Assembly (NCBI GenBank): GCA_039105265.1 | Contig: JAPFFF010000023.1 | Location: 744,001 to 808,000, forward strand | From: Tritrichomonas musculus | Taxonomy: Eukaryota; Parabasalia; Tritrichomonadida; Tritrichomonadidae | DNA: 64,000 bases | Reading direction: 5' to 3' | Part shown: positions 12,279 through 61,697 of the stretch, piece by piece | Numbering within the stretch: position 1 is the stretch's first letter | Layout of the letters: each line of letters starts with the position of its first letter | Position numbers and translations under genes: made by a program | Notes under the pieces: model-generated | Told to the model about the DNA's origin: nothing | The model's database searches: none | Seen by the model: the letters and a program-made list of their open reading frames with translations, nothing else

Positions 12279-12953
12279 TCAAACAATTTGCCTGCATGCC
12301 AATGAATGACAAGTACAGAAAGCATTCTCATCGATAAATGCGACTGTTGAAGGAATTTTCACTTTTTCCAATGAAATAAAAGTTACAGACGAAGTAATTG
12401 AAAAGTTTGTCAATAAAGAACGTTCACAAAAACAACATTCATGGAACATTTTTTTATTGCTTTAATGCTTAGATTTAGTAAAGATGAGCATCTCATGAAT
12501 GCACTTTTTTCTTGAGTAATTGAAGACATGGAATCATTAAAAACAAAGTTTGCTTCTAACAAAGTTTGCTTCTGACAAAGTTTGCTTCTGACAAAGTTTG
12601 CTTCTAGCAAAGTTTGCTTCTAGCAAAGTTTGCTTCCAGCAAATTTTGCTTCTAGCAAAGTTTGCTTCTAACAAATTTTGCTTGGTGAATGAAAATTCAA
12701 TAAATTTTGCATCAATTGAATTGAAAATAATTTTCTTGAGTGATTTATGATCATCTATATCGAACTGTTTCATATCAAAATCATCCCAATTGAATACAAT
12801 TTGGCTCACAGTGAAGCATCCTATTAAATAATTAACATCTTTACAGAGGAAAAACCTTTCATTTTTATTTCTTTGGAAAGAAGAACAACTATCAAGAGTG
12901 ACTTCAGTTAATGAGTGAAGTTCCATTGAAATATGGCTCATTAGTTCCAACAT
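12279..12953 (-). pseudogene. Decayed BspA-like leucine-rich-repeat gene interrupted by a minisatellite
   Basis: On the minus strand, an ATG at 12953 opens a 138-codon frame (beginning MLELMSHISMELHSLTEVT) of uncertain family. It runs into a 16-bp tandem repeat and stops. Beyond the repeat, other frames give SITQEKSAFMRCSSLLNLSI and then VKIPSTVAFIDENAFCTCHS. The last of these is the classic BspA/LRR_5 wording (IPSSVTSIGENAFSGCSSL). The pieces are in different frames, so this is debris of a BspA-like surface-protein gene on which the minisatellite has expanded. Whether the first frame belonged to the same gene is unclear. Confidence 0.55.
12544..12687. repeat. 16-bp minisatellite, nine copies
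   Basis: Nine consecutive 16-bp units of the type CAAAGTTTGCTTCTGA, varying mainly in the last four bases. Because 16 is not a multiple of 3, successive units are read in all three frames. This makes a 16-residue super-period in the overlapping minus-strand frame (SKLCQKQTLLEANFAR-like). Confidence 0.9.
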
Positions 12954-54000: not shown

Positions 54001-54008
54001 TTTGTTAT
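54001..54008. repeat. Left copy of 8-bp target-site duplication (TTTGTTAT)
   Basis: TTTGTTAT directly abuts the left terminal inverted repeat. The same eight bases in the same orientation abut the right one at 61690-61697. Confidence 0.75.
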
Positions 54009-54100
54009 GGCTCAAAGTCTTTATGCCCTTCACGATTTTGTGAGGATTCTCTCAATTTTTTGTGTAATTTTTTTCAAAAATGTAAAAATATAAAAATTAG

Positions 54101-54941
54101 CTCAGAAACAAATTGAATGATCATAGAATTGCAAAATAAACATTCAAAATAAAAAATTAAAATATCTCCACCAAAAAATCATTAAATAAAGCATTTCACT
54201 AAATTAAATGATAAAATATTATATTTTAGTAAATGAATATATGCACCAAAAGATGAAAAAGATGACTTTTCCTTATTCATTGAAAATAATTGAGAGATCA
54301 TTGAAATAATAATAAATGCATTCAATTAAAAAAACTAAAATATCTTGCCGGAAATAATAAAAACTATATTTCCAATCTAAATTAAACTTAATTATATAAG
54401 TAATATAATATATAAACTAATATAAAATGCGTATATTTTCGATATTTGGTTTTTAATTCAAAATAATTGAGAGATCATTGAAATAGGAATTAATGCATTC
54501 AATTAAAAAAACTAAAATATCTTGCCGGAAATAATAAAAACTATATTTCCAATCTAAATTAAACTTAATTATATAAGTAATATAATATATAAACAAATAT
54601 AAAATGCGCATATTTTCGATATTTGGTTTTTAATTCAAAATAATTGAGAGATCATTGAAACAAGAATTAATCTATTCAATTTAAAAATAAACAATATCCT
54701 AGTAAATTTAACGATATGTATATTATTTCTCTGGTTAAAATAGAATTAAATTGATGATAAGTAATCAAAATAATATTAGTTAATGAGAATTATTATTTTA
54801 TTATTTTGAATGCAAAAAATTGAATACTCTAATATAATCATAAATTTTTCAAAAATTTTACAAAATTTTTGAGAAATAAAAGGTATCAATCTACTCAAAC
54901 AGAAAGACATTATGTTAATTTATGTATTCCATTGTGATAAT
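54101..54941 (+). repeat. Left 841-bp inverted arm
   Basis: Reverse-complementary to 60793-61633 with equal length, so no net indel. It contains two complete 177-bp tandem units plus a partial third, with phase marks (AAAATAATTGAGAGATCATT) at 54283, 54460 and 54637. Confidence 0.9.
54283..54660. repeat. 177-bp tandem repeat within the arm (two units plus partial)
   Basis: Unit starts are exactly 177 bp apart (54283, 54460 and 54637). Units differ by a few substitutions, and the third diverges after about 25 bp. The same units occur inverted in the right arm at about 61075-61452. Confidence 0.85.
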
Positions 54942-55440
54942 GGACATATTACTTTTATGTTACATCTAAAAAATTTTATTTATTTTTTAAAAATTTAGCG
55001 AAAAAACATAACAAAAATAATGATCATAATAAAAGCATATAAAGTTTTTATGATAACAACCAATAGAATCATCTATATGAAATACCATAAAAAAGGAATA
55101 TATACTCATTATATAATTAAAATTTTTGATTTAACTTTATTTTGCAAATTCATTTTAAAAAGTGAATATAGAAGATACCAAAAATTTTAGCATGAAAATT
55201 GTAAGTGATTATAATAAGTGAAATTCATGATAAGAATGTGGAATTTGTCAAGATTTTATATTGACATTAATAAATTACACATTGATAATTCCAATTTTTT
55301 ACATCTTTTACAAATGAAAGTTATAGTTAGAAATATGAGAAATATGAGACAAATAATATTTCAAAAGAATATTAAATGCAAAAAAAAAAATAATAATTAG
55401 ATTATAAATCACACCTTCACAGGGGATAAACAAGATTAAC

Positions 55441-58400
55441 ATGCTCATACATATTTAATGCATATCCATACATTTTTGTGCATATTCATATATATTTGAT
55501 TCATATTCATACATATTTAATAGATATTCATATATATTTGATGCATATTCATACATATTTAATATATATTCATATATGTTTGATGCATATTCATACATAT
55601 TTGATGCATATTCATACATATTTGATGCATATTCATACATATTTGATGCATATTCATACATATTTGATGCATATTCATACATATTTGATGCATATTCATG
55701 CATATTTAATATATATTCATATATGTTTGATGCATATTCATACATATTTGATGCATATTCATACATATTTAATAGATATTCATATATGTTTGATGCATAT
55801 TCAACCATTATTGTGCATATTAATAGATATATTATTGCATATTTATACATATTTGATGCATATTCAACCATTATTGTGCATATTAATAGATATTTTATTG
55901 CATATTCATACATATTTGATGCATATTCATAAACATTTGATGCATATTCATACATATTTGATGCATATTCATGCATATTTAATATATATTCATATATGTT
56001 TGATGCATATTCATACATATTTAATAGATATTCATATATGTTTGATGCATATTCATACATATTTGATGCATATTCATACATATTTGATGCATATTCATAC
56101 ATATTTGATGCATATTCATACATATTTGATGCATATTCATACATATTTGATGCATATTCATACATATTTGATGCATATTCATGCATATTTAATATATATT
56201 CATATATGTTTGATGCATATTCATACATATTTGATGCATATTCATACATATTTGATGCATATTCATACATATTTGATGCATATTCATACATATTTGATGC
56301 ATATTCATACATATTTGATGCATATTCATACATATTTGATGCATATTCATAAATATTTGATGCATATTCATACATATTTAATAGATATTCATATATGTTT
56401 GATGCATATTCATACATATTTGATGCATATTCATACATATTTAATAGATATTCATATATGTTTGATGCATATTCATACATATTTGATGCATATTCATGCA
56501 TATTTAATATATATTCATATATGTTTGATGCATATTCATACATATTTGATGCATATTCATGCATATTTAATATATATTCATATATGTTTGATGCATATTC
56601 ATACATATTTGATGCATATTCATACATATTTGATGCATATTCATACATATTTGATGCATATTCATACATATTTGATGCATATTCATACATATTTGATGCA
56701 TATTCATACATATTTGATGCATATTCATGCATATTTAATATATATTCATATATGTTTGATGCATATTCATACATATTTGATGCATATTCATACATATTTA
56801 ATAGATATTCATATATGTTTGATGCATATTCAACCATTATTGTGCATATTAATAGATATATTATTGCATATTTATACATATTTGATGCATATTCAACCAT
56901 TATTGTGCATATTAATAGATATTTTATTGCATATTCATACATATTTGATGCATATTCATAAACATTTGATGCATATTCATACATATTTGATGCATATTCA
57001 TGCATATTTAATATATATTCATATATGTTTGATGCATATTCATACATATTTAATAGATATTCATATATGTTTGATGCATATTCATACATATTTGATGCAT
57101 ATTCATACATATTTGATGCATATTCATACATATTTGATGCATATTCATACATATTTGATGCATATTCATAAACATTTGATGCATATTCATACATATTTGA
57201 TGCATATTCATACATATTTGATGCATATTCATACATATTTGATGCATATTCATACATATTTGATGCATATTCATACATATTTGATGCATATTCATACATA
57301 TTTGATGCATATTCATAAATATTTGATGCATATTCATACATATTTGATGCATATTCATGCATATTTAATATATATTCATACATATTTAATAGATATTCAT
57401 ATATGTTTGATGCATATTCATGCATATTTAATATATATTCATATATGTTTGATGCATATTCAACCATTATTGTGCATATTAATAGATATTTTATTGCATA
57501 TTTATACATATTTGATGCATATTCAACCATTATTGTGCATATTAATAGATATTTTATTGCATATTCATACATATTTGATGCATATTCATAAACATTTGAT
57601 GCATATTCATACATATTTGATGCATATTCATGCATATTTAATATATATTCATATATGTTTGATGCATATTCATACATATTTAATAGATATTCATATATGT
57701 TTGATGCATATTCATACATATTTAATAGATATTCATATATGTTTGATGCATATTCATAAATATTTAATATATATTCATATATGTTTGATGCATATTCAAC
57801 CATTATTGTGCATATTAATAGATATTTTATTGCATATTTATACATATTTGATGCATATTCAACCATTATTGTGCATATTAATAGATATTTTATTGCATAT
57901 TCATACATATTTGATGCATATTCATAAACATTTGATGCATATTCATACATATTTGATGCATATTCATGCATATTTAATATATATTCATAAATATTTGATG
58001 CATATTCATACATATTTGATGCATATTCATGCATATTTAATATATATTCATACATATTTAATAGATATTCATATATGTTTGATGCATATTCATGCATATT
58101 TAATATATATTCATATATGTTTGATGCATATTCAACCATTATTGTGCATATTAATAGATATTTTATTGCATATTTATACATATTTGATGCATATTCAACC
58201 ATTATTGTGCATATTAATAGATATTTTATTGCATATTCATACATATTTGATGCATATTCATAAACATTTGATGCATATTCATACATATTTGATGCATATT
58301 CATGCATATTTAATATATATTCATATATGTTTGATGCATATTCATACATATTTAATAGATATTCATATATGTTTGATGCATATTCAACCATTATTGTGCA

Positions 58401-59060
58401 TATTAATAGATATATTATTGCATATTTATACATATTTGATGCATATTCAACCATTATTGTGCATATTAATAGATATTTTATTGCATATTCATACATATTT
58501 GATGCATATTCATAAACATTTGATGCATATTCATACATATTTGATGCATATTCATGCATATTTAATATATATTCATATATGTTTGATGCATATTCATACA
58601 TATTTAATAGATATTCATATATGTTTGATGCATATTCATACATATTTGATGCATATTCAACCATTATTGTGCATATTAATATATATTTGATGCATATTCA
58701 TACATATTTAATGCATATTTATATATTTTATTGCATATTCATACATATTTAATGCATATTTATATATTTTATTGCATATTCATACATATTTGATGCATAT
58801 TCAAGCATATTTAATATATATTCATATATGTTTGATTCATATTCATTAATTTTGGTGTATATTCATACATATTTGATGCATATTTATAGATATTAGATGC
58901 ATATTCATATATGTTTGATGCACATTTATACATATTTAATAGAATTCATGCATGTTTGGTACATATTCATACATATTTGTGCATATTTAATAGATATTCA
59001 TAAACATTTAATTCATATTCATATATGTATGATGCATATTCATAATATTTGAGCATATAT
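55441..59060. repeat. 21-bp minisatellite with higher-order organisation, about 170 units
   Basis: The basic unit is 21 bp, of the form TACATATTTGATGCATATTC plus A, with recurrent variants (ATATATGTTTGATGC, GCATATTTAATATAT, ATACATATTTAATAGAT, ATAAACATTTGATGC and a CAACCATTATTGTGC type). The CAACC variant occurs in pairs exactly 63 bp apart at 55802, 56831, 57461, 57797, 58133 and 58385. The distances between pairs (1029, 630, 336, 336 and 252) are all multiples of 21. Phase is thus kept with no indel over at least 2.8 kb. The repeat becomes ragged beyond about 58680. Frames of more than 1,000 codons on both strands follow from a period divisible by 3 and are not taken as genes. Confidence 0.95.
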
Positions 59061-59349
59061 AATGACCATAAAGCTCAAAATAATCTCGATTTCTGCATTT
59101 TAATTTTAATCTTTGGTCATAAAATATTGATATATTAAATTAAAAACATAGTGAATTCAATTTATTTAACTTAATGGGAAAGCACAAATAGGAATTAGGT
59201 TCAAAAAGTACATATGCTATTTTTTTTAAAAAAGAAGAGTCTTTAAAAATGTAAAAATAAATTAAATCAGACTCATATAATATAATGTACATTAGATATA
59301 GTTAATAATGAAAATAATTATTAAGCCTTTTATATAAAAAAAATATTTA

Positions 59350-60081
59350 GAAGGGGCGAAGCTCCTGATTTTCAATATGATTCATTTTATAATTTTATAT
59401 CATTATATTTATTTGCTGTTAAGATTATTTTTCCAAATTGTATTCATTTTTATATGGTGAAAAAAAAGATATAGGTATTTTTATTTTTATAAAAATCATT
59501 GAATTGTTAATCGTGTAAGTAAATATTGACCATATTAAAAACGGTTTAATTTTTTAAAATTTTATGATTATTTTATAAAATTTCCAAACTTTTTGAATTC
59601 ATTGAATTTTTTTCTTTTAATTTTTATTCGTTGTTTTTTAGATATATGCTTAAAATTTAAAGATAATTCTTTTTGTATTTTAAATAATCTCGATTATTGA
59701 TTAAATATTTAATATTATTTGTTCTAAAAAAGCCAAATATTATGAAATAATTTTGATATCAAAAGATTGGCCATATAAAATGGCATACAATTTTATATCT
59801 TACATTAATAAATGTATTTTTATTTATTTTTATTGCGTTTTATAACATCGTATTGAAGTTCACATAGAAAATTATGTTTTTTACTTTCTGAGCAAAAAGA
59901 AGTTTTTCATTCAATTTTTTTGATTTAAAATAGCATTATCTTGAATTTTTTACACATTAATGCTTATAACATTTGTTCAAATATATTTTATAAAATGTAT
60001 TCATTATAAATAAATAATTAATATTGCAATATAACTATCATAAAATGAAAAAGGTTAACGGTCGAAGAGCTTCGCCCCTTC
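59350..60081. mobile_element. 732-bp MITE-like element, 15-bp perfect TIR and TA duplication
   Basis: GAAGGGGCGAAGCTC at 59350-59364 is exactly inverted at 60067-60081, and TA flanks both (59348-59349 and 60082-60083). The match extends outward through the self-complementary AAATATTT. There is no coding frame inside. It lies between the satellite and the right arm of the 7.7-kb element. Confidence 0.75.
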
Positions 60082-60237
60082 TAAATATTTTATTAATTGA
60101 ATAATTTAAAATGAATATGGTGTATATTAGTTATTTATAATTTTAATTATTATAGGTTTTTATCAAGGTTTCACTATAATACATAAATAATATGATATAT
60201 ATATATATATATAAAATATTATTTTATTTAATAAATA

Positions 60238-60749
60238 GAGAACCGCGGAAAATCTTTTTACTTATTGATATAACTGACTTTTTTTCAATAAGACACTCAT
60301 TTTTTTTAAGGGAATTTTTAGGAATAAAATATATATATTCATTAAAATCTAAAATTTAACAAATAACTCGTTTTGCAGCAAAAAGAGAGACATTTCAAAA
60401 AAACTATGGTTTTTCGAAAAAAGTAAAAAACAAATATATCTCAAAAAATAAAAGCATTTATACTTTTATTTTTTATATTAATCCTTATTATAATATTTAA
60501 ATTTTAAATTTATATTTTTAAGATTCTTACTTTTCAACAAAGAAGGATAAAATTATTTTTATATTAAATAAATGATACTCTTCATTCAAAAAAATCAATG
60601 TGATTTCATAAAATGTTTTGATTTTTTGAAAAACTAAGTTTTTTCGAAATAAAAAAGTTTTTTTAATAAAACCATTTTTTAAATATAATTATAACAATTT
60701 TAAATATAAATAATTTATATTGATAAGTAAAAACTTTCTCGCGGTTCTC
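60238..60749. mobile_element. 512-bp MITE-like element, about 32-bp imperfect TIR and TA duplication
   Basis: GAGAACCGCG at 60238-60247 is inverted at 60740-60749, followed by a second matching block (TTTTTACTTAT) in both ends. TA flanks both sides (60236-60237 and 60750-60751). The interior has A+T-rich tandem-like text and no gene. Confidence 0.75.
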
Positions 60750-60792
60750 TAATATTAGATATAATCAATTCTAATATGGTGGTTTTACACAT

Positions 60793-61633
60793 ATTATCAC
60801 AATGGAATACATAAATTAACATAATGTCTTTCTGTTTGAGTAGATTGATACTTTTTATTTCTCAAAAATTTTGTAAAATTTTTGAAAAATTTATGATTAT
60901 ATTAGAGTATTCAATTTTTTGCATTCAAAATAATAAAATAATAATTCTCATTAACTAATATTATTTTGATTACTTATCATCAATTTAATTCTATTTTAAC
61001 CAGAGAAATAATATACATATCGTTAAATTTACTAGGATATTGTTTATTTTTAAATTGAATAGATTAATTCTTGTTTCAATGATCTCTCAATTATTTTGAA
61101 TTAAAAACCAAATATCGAAAATATGCGCATTTTATATTTGTTTATATATTATATTACTTATATAATTAAGTTTAATTTAGATTGGAAATATAGTTTTTAT
61201 TATTTCCGGCAAGATATTTTAGTTTTTTTAATTGAATGCATTAATTCCTATTTCAATGATCTCTCAATTATTTTGAATTAAAAACCAAATATCGAAAATA
61301 TACGCATTTTATATTAGTTTATATATTATATTACTTATATAATTAAGTTTAATTTAGATTGGAAATATAGTTTTTATTATTTCCGGCAAGATATTTTAGT
61401 TTTTTTAATTGAATGCATTTATTATTATTTCAATGATCTCTCAATTATTTTCAATGAATAAGGAAAAGTCATCTTTTTCATCTTTTGGTGCATATATTCA
61501 TTTACTAAAATATAATATTTTATCATTTAATTTAGTGAAATGCTTTATTTAATGATTTTTTGGTGGAGATATTTTAATTTTTTATTTTGAATGTTTATTT
61601 TGCAATTCTATGATCATTCAATTTGTTTCTGAG
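60793..61633 (-). repeat. Right 841-bp inverted arm
   Basis: The mirror copy of the left arm. Small within-arm differences between tandem units (for example GCGTAT versus GCGCAT) are reproduced in both arms, showing that the arms were copied as a whole. Confidence 0.9.
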
Positions 61634-61689
61634 AGTATGTTTTTTTTCTTCAGAAAAATTGAGAGTGAAGGGCATAAAGACTTTGAGCC

Positions 61690-61697
61690 TTTGTTAT
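61690..61697. repeat. Right copy of 8-bp target-site duplication (TTTGTTAT)
   Basis: Directly follows the right terminal inverted repeat of the 7.7-kb element. Confidence 0.75.

What the first reader, a model, noticed from the sequence alone, without database searches (positions are those of the whole stretch)
54001..61697. A 7.7-kb element with 8-bp TSD, terminal inverted repeats and 841-bp identical arms around a satellite core
TTTGTTAT|GGCTCAAAG... on the left mirrors ...CTTTGAGCC|TTTGTTAT on the right. Inside are 841-bp arms I read as identical, a 3.6-kb 21-bp minisatellite and two smaller elements. No transposase is visible. It combines transposon ends with foldback-like arms and a satellite payload, which I have not seen described for trichomonads. 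It could be a satellite-spreading element, a large non-autonomous hAT/Merlin-type transposon, or a chromosome-structural element such as a centromere or origin.
Basis: partly seen in the sequence, partly recalled or inferred. Interest (0 to 1): 0.87.

Follow-up and report, generated by a model that had tools for sequence, protein, structure and literature searches.

The report
Foldback Merlin transposon carrying a satellite
This 7.7-kb stretch of a mouse-gut protist's genome is most likely a jumping gene of the Merlin type that has lost its own enzyme, grown long mirror-image arms and a private repeat array, and whose middle is flipped relative to a near-identical copy elsewhere in the genome.

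Summary
The window copy (54009-61689) has perfect 25-bp inverted ends, an 8-bp duplication (TTTGTTAT), near-identical inverted arms (1 mismatch in 833), a 21-bp-unit minisatellite, two nested TA-flanked MITEs and no transposase. The assembly matches Tritrichomonas musculus EAF2021 (two contig lengths agree). It holds 28 matches to the terminus (control 0). Ten copies have both ends; nine carry exact 8-bp duplications. Two relatives on C22 carry a Merlin (IS1595-type) transposase, one with an intact 315-aa frame, so the window copy is most likely a non-autonomous Merlin element. The 28-kb and 97.6-kb copies are swollen by nested insertions, Maverick/Polinton DNA shown in the first and likely in the second. 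Merlin, foldback elements and satellite-bearing transposons are each known; my searches found no foldback Merlin and no trichomonad Merlin. Verdict: new variant of a known kind.

The parts
54001..54008 (.). target-site duplication TTTGTTAT, left
   Evidence: equals 61690-61697
54009..54033 (+). 25-bp terminal inverted repeat, begins GG
54009..54101 (+). L-type end (TIR plus about 68 bp found only at this end)
   Evidence: one L-type and one R-type outer end in 10 of 10 two-ended copies
54101..54941 (+). left foldback arm
54279..54687 (+). 177-bp tandem repeat x2.3 in the left arm
54941..55445 (+). U1, core segment outside the satellite; next to the L-type end here (isomer A)
55445..59058 (+). 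21-bp-unit minisatellite with 42/63-bp and longer periods
   Evidence: all listed matches lie in family copies
59069..59349 (+). U2a, core segment outside the satellite
59350..60081 (.). nested MITE 1 with TA on both sides, GAAGGGGCG...CGCCCCTTC termini
   Evidence: no match in the other copies mapped
60084..60237 (+). U2b, core segment outside the satellite; next to the R-type end here (isomer A)
60238..60749 (.). nested MITE 2 with TA on both sides, GAGAACCGCGG...CGCGGTTCTC termini
   Evidence: empty site read in copy C6
60793..61633 (-). right foldback arm
61047..61455 (-). 177-bp tandem repeat x2.3 in the right arm
61634..61689 (-). R-type end (TIR plus about 31 bp found only at this end)
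61665..61689 (-). 25-bp terminal inverted repeat
61690..61697 (.). target-site duplication TTTGTTAT, right

Best explanation
A non-autonomous, foldback-type member of a Merlin (IS1595/IS1016-related) DNA transposon family in Tritrichomonas musculus. Shown: GG-starting 25-bp inverted ends, 8-bp duplications, a Merlin-type transposase gene (one intact, one broken) in two relatives with the same arms, arms alike within a copy but usually different between copies, a core inverted relative to the ends in two branches, and a satellite not seen outside the family. Inferred: a Merlin transposase acting in trans cuts at the two unlike ends (L and R) and inserts the element with 8-bp staggered cuts. The window copy lost the transposase region by internal deletion. 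Recombination between the inverted arms of one copy both keeps the arms alike (gene conversion) and flips the core (crossing over). The array expands by unequal exchange or slippage inside the copy.
For: 28 matches to the terminus with up to 3 mismatches, reversed control 0. Exact 8-bp duplications in 9 of 10 two-ended copies: window, C2:9442097, C25, C1, C4, C3:1131537, C3:2291099, C28, C2:1529824; not C6. C22:1084513 copy has R-type end, arm, satellite, intact 315-aa PF12762 frame (2.2e-23), U2 and second arm; C22:59277 copy has a broken piece of that gene, 98% alike over 362 bases. D166 and D229 in all 8 aligned proteins, E269 in 7 of 8 (triad assignment mine). A second Merlin family in the genome starts GG at 9 of 10 ends and has exact 8-bp duplications in 3 of 5 copies. 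PMC8101967 gives 5'-GG ends, TIRs of 24-462 bp and 8- or 9-bp TSDs as Merlin features (passages). Arms: 4 of 6285 sites differ within eight copies; 2 of 40320 pairings, the true one included, score this low. Core orientation: 9 copies B, 2 copies A (window, C28); window and C6 cores differ at 2 of 933 sites yet lie in opposite orientation, and C28 falls in another clade.
Against: No copy seen has both ends and an intact transposase: C22:1084513 lacks the L-type end. Its duplication cannot be tested, and that this transposase moves the family is inferred from shared arms and ends. C6 has no duplication. C28's two arms differ at 18 of 590 sites, so they are not alike there. In the second Merlin family 2 of 5 copies lack an exact duplication. 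No empty allele of the window site was found in the assembly.
Confidence: 0.88

Rival explanations
1. The arms are alike within a copy not because they exchange in place but because one arm is copied from the other at each birth of a copy (for example during gap repair after excision, or at a hairpin step), so identity only reflects young copies and the inversions happened during transposition.
For: Arms share their own copy's variants. C28, whose arms now lie 26 kb apart, has arms differing at 18 of 590 sites, which fits homogenising at birth only (it also fits conversion failing over a long distance).
Against: C28's right arm has a span of 1010 instead of 833 bases, about one 177-bp unit more, so it is not a clean test. 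The flipped window copy and its unflipped near-twin C6 have equally matched arms (1 of 833 and 0 of 732). Nothing here excludes this rival.
Confidence: 0.3
2. The element belongs to another superfamily with 8-bp duplications (hAT, P or Mutator-like) and the Merlin gene on C22 is a passenger.
For: 8-bp duplications are not unique to Merlin (recalled). Only two copies were seen to carry the gene, one of them broken.
Against: Ends start GG, a feature reported for all Merlin families. The gene lies inside two family copies, and a second Merlin family in this genome shows the same kind of ends. Tetris was assigned to Mutator on 8-10-bp TSDs without a transposase, so TSD length alone is weak evidence either way. 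No hAT, P or Mutator profile was searched.
Confidence: 0.07
3. The element is a gutted Maverick/Polinton provirus, since the 28-kb copy carries polymerase B, an A32-type ATPase and a weak integrase match.
For: Gene content of the C28 copy; rve matches inside the 97.6-kb span.
Against: The Maverick in C28 has its own AGTAGTAATACTAAG ends, inverted over several hundred bases, lying inside the satellite. Different DNA ending in ...CTATACTACT abuts the satellite of the 97.6-kb copy. The window copy and six short copies have no frame of 100 aa or more among those shown (up to eight each) other than satellite frames (judged by eye from the start of each frame).
Confidence: 0.02
4. A chromosome-structural element such as a centromere or replication origin.
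For: Satellite and inverted repeats resemble such sites.
Against: Dispersed over at least nine contigs, two copies on C2, C3 and C22 each, with target-site duplications and arrays of at most 3.6 kb in the eight copies measured.
Confidence: 0.01
5. The inverted arms or the flipped core are assembly artefacts.
For: Near-identical inverted arms are a known source of false inversions (general knowledge). Reads were not examined.
Against: PacBio reads averaging 8.9 kb and ONT reads were used, long enough to cross an arm of under 1 kb; the paired-arm structure recurs in eight copies at distinct sites, six of them with their own duplications.
Confidence: 0.02

Closest known systems
Merlin superfamily (eukaryotic relatives of IS1016 in the IS1595 family)
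   Same: PF12762 transposase in the family, ends starting GG, 8-bp duplication, short TIR of 25 bp; internal tandem repeats are also reported in Merlin (PMC8101967, abstract and passages)
   Different: Inverted arms of about 840-860 bp behind unlike ends (reported TIRs 24-462 bp), a 0.8-3.6-kb satellite core, core inversion. That paper found Merlin in Metamonada only in Preaxostyla, among 24 genomes from 3 phyla.
Galileo (foldback-like, P superfamily, Drosophila)
   Same: Long TIRs alike within a copy but about 7% diverged between copies, and a middle segment in opposite orientation in two copies (PMC2775673, abstract lines and passages)
   Different: P superfamily, 7-bp duplications. There the recombination discussed was between copies and exchanged the duplications; here both flipped copies keep matching duplications.
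Tetris (foldback element giving rise to a satellite, Drosophila virilis)
   Same: Foldback arms with internal tandem repeats, no transposase found, 8-10-bp duplications (PMC4079207, abstract and discussion part 1)
   Different: Tetris's satellite comes from the arm repeats and forms large arrays; here the satellite is in the core, the arm repeats vary by about one 177-bp unit in the arms measured (spans 656, 833 and 1010), and no free arrays were seen.
Maverick/Polinton
   Same: Found inside the C28 family copy
   Different: A separate nested element with its own AG-starting ends

Membership tests
Merlin superfamily | DDE_Tnp_IS1595 transposase | tested here: met
   Met in a relative (C22:1088804-1089748, PF12762 2.2e-23), with a broken gene piece in C22:66142 that alone gave no Pfam match; absent from the window copy itself
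Merlin superfamily | Ends begin 5'-GG | tested here: met
   Both window ends GG; 24 of 28 terminus matches begin GG, the others TG, TG, TA and AG
Merlin superfamily | 8- or 9-bp duplication | tested here: met
   9 of 10 two-ended copies, 8 bp
Merlin superfamily | TIR 24-462 bp as reported | tested here: met
   25-bp perfect TIR; the long arms exceed the range but lie behind the unlike ends
Merlin superfamily | Conserved DDE triad | tested here: met
   D166, D229 in 8 of 8 and E269 in 7 of 8 aligned proteins; assignment of the triad is mine
Merlin superfamily | Transposase acts on these ends | not testable with these tools
   needs a binding or excision assay
Foldback-type element (a structure, not a lineage) | Long inverted arms with internal tandem repeats | tested here: met
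   858-nt arms with 177-bp x2.3 repeats
Maverick/Polinton | Polymerase B, ATPase and integrase encoded between its own ends | tested here: not met
   none in the window copy; in C28 they lie in a nested element
hAT | CA-starting ends (recalled) | tested here: not met
   ends start GG
hAT | hAT transposase | not tested
   no hAT profile was searched in the genome; the gene found in relatives is PF12762
Mutator-like | MULE transposase | not tested
   no MULE profile was searched in the genome; the gene found in relatives is PF12762

The most novel reading that the evidence does not exclude
The first foldback-type Merlin: its two arms work as a recombination switch that repeatedly flips the core and keeps the arms alike, and its satellite arose and expands only inside the element, giving a set of replicate satellites at known sites. 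Boldest form: folding of the arms is part of how the element moves or is repaired, so inversion and arm identity are by-products of a hairpin-like step in Merlin transposition.
Probability: 0.3. Interest if true: 0.65.

Novelty: new variant of a known kind. Interest (0 to 1): 0.47.

Why it matters
Foldback elements are said mostly to belong to Mutator, with exceptions (PMC4079207), such as Galileo in the P superfamily (PMC2775673). A Merlin case would show that the structure arises again on another transposase, with similar consequences: matched arms and flipped middles. The T. musculus copies, including a flipped copy and a near-twin in the other orientation, make arm exchange and the early growth of a satellite testable by comparing strains at fixed insertion sites. 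It also adds Merlin elements from a trichomonad, which my searches did not find described.

Tried and rejected
Rfam (gathering threshold) and tRNA scans of the window gave nothing. A gutted-Maverick reading, raised by the 28-kb copy, was dropped once its own ends were seen inside the satellite. A whole 97.6-kb transposon was considered and rejected: its left arm is interrupted and resumes at C2:1543466, and other DNA abuts the satellite on the right; the middle of that span was not read. An empty-site search for the window copy found only the occupied site. Automatic end scans on the other Merlin loci gave nothing usable, four of them because the fetched pieces stopped inside the element; a pattern search and small flanks solved it for that family. 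The nearest well-covered Merlin relative, C1:4307814 (50% identical), showed no inverted arms at the threshold used. Integrase of C28 against the PDB: no match. The genome search for polymerase B did not complete.

Rows left out of counts: C3:2291099 has an extra internal R-type end and was left out of the A/B orientation count (it is in the tree). C28 was left out of the arm permutation because its right arm is longer (reported separately), and C2:1529824 and C22:59277 because only one arm of each was held. Partial arms were used for C6, C3:1131537 and C22:1084513. Solo ends and fragments on C10, C13, C15, C4:3859026, C64 and C584 were in no orientation or arm count. In one search only 100 of 202 satellite matches were listed.
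Full report
What is there. The window element runs from 54009 to 61689 between two copies of TTTGTTAT. Its ends are a perfect 25-bp inverted repeat that begins GGCTCAAAG. Behind the TIR the two ends differ: the L-type end has about 68 further bases and the R-type end about 31, then come the arms, 858 nt at 99% in the repeat search and one mismatch in the 833 sites compared. Each arm holds a 177-bp repeat, 2.3 units. Between the arms lie U1, a 3.6-kb minisatellite of 21-bp units with strong 42/63-bp and longer periods, U2a and U2b, and two nested MITEs flanked by TA. No gene is visible; the long frames are satellite frames.

Where it lives. The window is C23:744001-808000 of a 193.40-Mb assembly in 746 contigs. 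Its C1 length (11,419,247) and C15 length (3,579,227) equal the longest contig and the N50 printed for Tritrichomonas musculus EAF2021; the printed totals differ slightly, 193.49 Mb and 756 contigs (PMC11978803, parts 1 and 2 of 4 read). Its IMP dehydrogenase is closest to PDB 1ak5 (recalled to be the T. foetus enzyme) and not identical to it.

The family. The terminus has 28 matches with up to 3 mismatches and none for the reversed control. Ten copies have both ends, and nine of them exact 8-bp duplications; C6 has none. Each of the ten has one L-type and one R-type outer end. Random 8-mers of the window agree in 47 of 200000 draws.

The enzyme. The copy at C22:1084513 has an R-type end, both arms (the second cut short), satellite, U2 and an intact 315-aa frame that matches PF12762, DDE_Tnp_IS1595, at 2.2e-23. 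A second copy at C22:59277 has a broken piece of the same gene, 98% alike over 362 bases, too short to give a Pfam match by itself, and a DDE_1-type transposase frame. The genome has 64 matches to the protein, most of them distant. An independent Merlin family here begins GGATTAATT (9 of 10 ends GG) and has exact 8-bp duplications in three of five copies; in a fourth the repeat is offset by one base, and the fifth has none. Merlin elements are described as having 5'-GG ends, TIRs of 24-462 bp and 8- or 9-bp duplications (PMC8101967, abstract and passages). The window copy is therefore best read as a non-autonomous Merlin element. No copy with both ends and an intact gene was seen. In the window copy and six short copies the frames shown of 100 aa or more are satellite frames.

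The arms. Over eight copies with both arms held in full or part, the arms of one copy differ at 4 of 6285 sites. Left and right arms of different copies differ by a median of 1.4% and up to 3.1%, the least being 0 between the near-twins (window and C6). Of 40320 ways of pairing the arms, 2, the true one included, score as low as the true one. In the 28-kb C28 copy, left out of that test, the arms differ at 18 of 590 sites, and its right arm spans 1010 instead of 833 bases. So matched arms are usual but not universal.

The flip. Nine copies have U2 next to the L-type end (B): C2:9442097, C25, C6, C1, C4, C3:1131537, C2:1529824, C22:59277 and C22:1084513, the last judged from its R-type end. Two have U1 there (A): the window copy and C28. 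The window core differs from that of C6 at 2 of 933 sites but is inverted. In the tree the window copy, C6 and C2:9442097 are split from the rest with support 84, and C28 groups with C3:1131537, C3:2291099 and C2:1529824 with support 89, so at least two flips are needed. Both A copies have matching duplications, so the exchange was within one copy or happened before that copy moved. Galileo is a precedent for matched arms and opposite middles (PMC2775673, passages).

The satellite. An exact 46-base word has 41 matches, all in family copies, control 0. A 33-base word with up to 2 mismatches has 202 matches, control 0; the 100 listed are all in family copies, the transposase-bearing relative included. 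Array lengths in eight copies run from 833 to 3623 bp, the window's being longest. The array is thus part of the family rather than a cargo picked up by the window copy. More diverged satellite elsewhere would not have been seen by these words.

The swollen copies. C28 (28,048 bp) contains a Maverick/Polinton-like element with polymerase B (PF03175, 1.1e-24), an A32-type ATPase (PF04665, 3.1e-6), a weak integrase match (rve, below its cut-off) and an HNH domain, bounded by its own inverted ends inside the satellite (97% over an 879-column alignment that includes some satellite). No clean Maverick target duplication could be read in the AT-rich satellite: the two sides share TATA (my reading). 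The C2:1529824-1627400 span (97.6 kb) has equal 8-bp flanks, an interrupted left arm, a DDE_3 transposase frame, an integrase match over the cut-off near its left end and a weaker one inside, and other DNA abutting its satellite. I read these as nested insertions; the middle of the span was not read.

Novelty. Searches for Merlin with Trichomonas (4 papers), Tritrichomonas (22, of which 15 listed), foldback (2) and Parabasalia (1) showed no foldback Merlin and no trichomonad Merlin in what I read. The passages read of PMC10045372, PMC5718144 and PMC3072357 do not report one; the other papers of these listings were seen as listings only. In PMC8101967 the main text holds neither 'trichomon' nor 'foldback'; its supplements were not seen. 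Repbase and most subscription papers could not be searched, so priority is not proven. Each component is known elsewhere; the combination on a Merlin transposase, with recurrent flipping, is the new part.

Noticed in passing
L038-L040 (C28:1785001-1815000): A Maverick/Polinton-like element sits in the satellite of the C28 family copy; its end sequence occurs twice, about 300 bases apart, at each side.
   Followed up: partly
L041, L042 (C2:1529824-1627400): A 97.6-kb span with matching 8-bp flanks, apparently one Merlin-family copy carrying several nested insertions, among them a DDE_3 transposase frame and an integrase match.
   Followed up: partly
L054-L057, L059-L064: A second Merlin family with GGATTAATT ends, copies of about 4.2-6.0 kb, a 133-bp internal tandem repeat and what look like 300-bp MITEs sharing its ends (217 matches against 73 for the control).
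   Followed up: partly
L015/L028 (C584) and L032 (C25): Contig C584 ends in what looks like the same insertion as the C25 copy (same 20-base flank), so it is probably a duplicate or allelic contig.
   Followed up: no
L037/L048 (C3:2291099-2297155): A copy with outer L and R ends and duplication CATGCTTT but an additional R-type end inside, a sign of a more complex rearrangement.
   Followed up: partly
L045 (C10:4244500-4254400): An R-type end and arm followed by a different tandem repeat (36/72/108-bp period) and a separate 392-bp inverted repeat.
   Followed up: no
window 12542-12683: 16-bp tandem repeat AACAAAGTTTGCTTCT, 8.9 copies, 92%.
   Followed up: no
whole genome: 797 candidates for an integrase core (PF00665), 150 scored, many in frames of about 362 aa, which fits a large Maverick load.
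   Followed up: no
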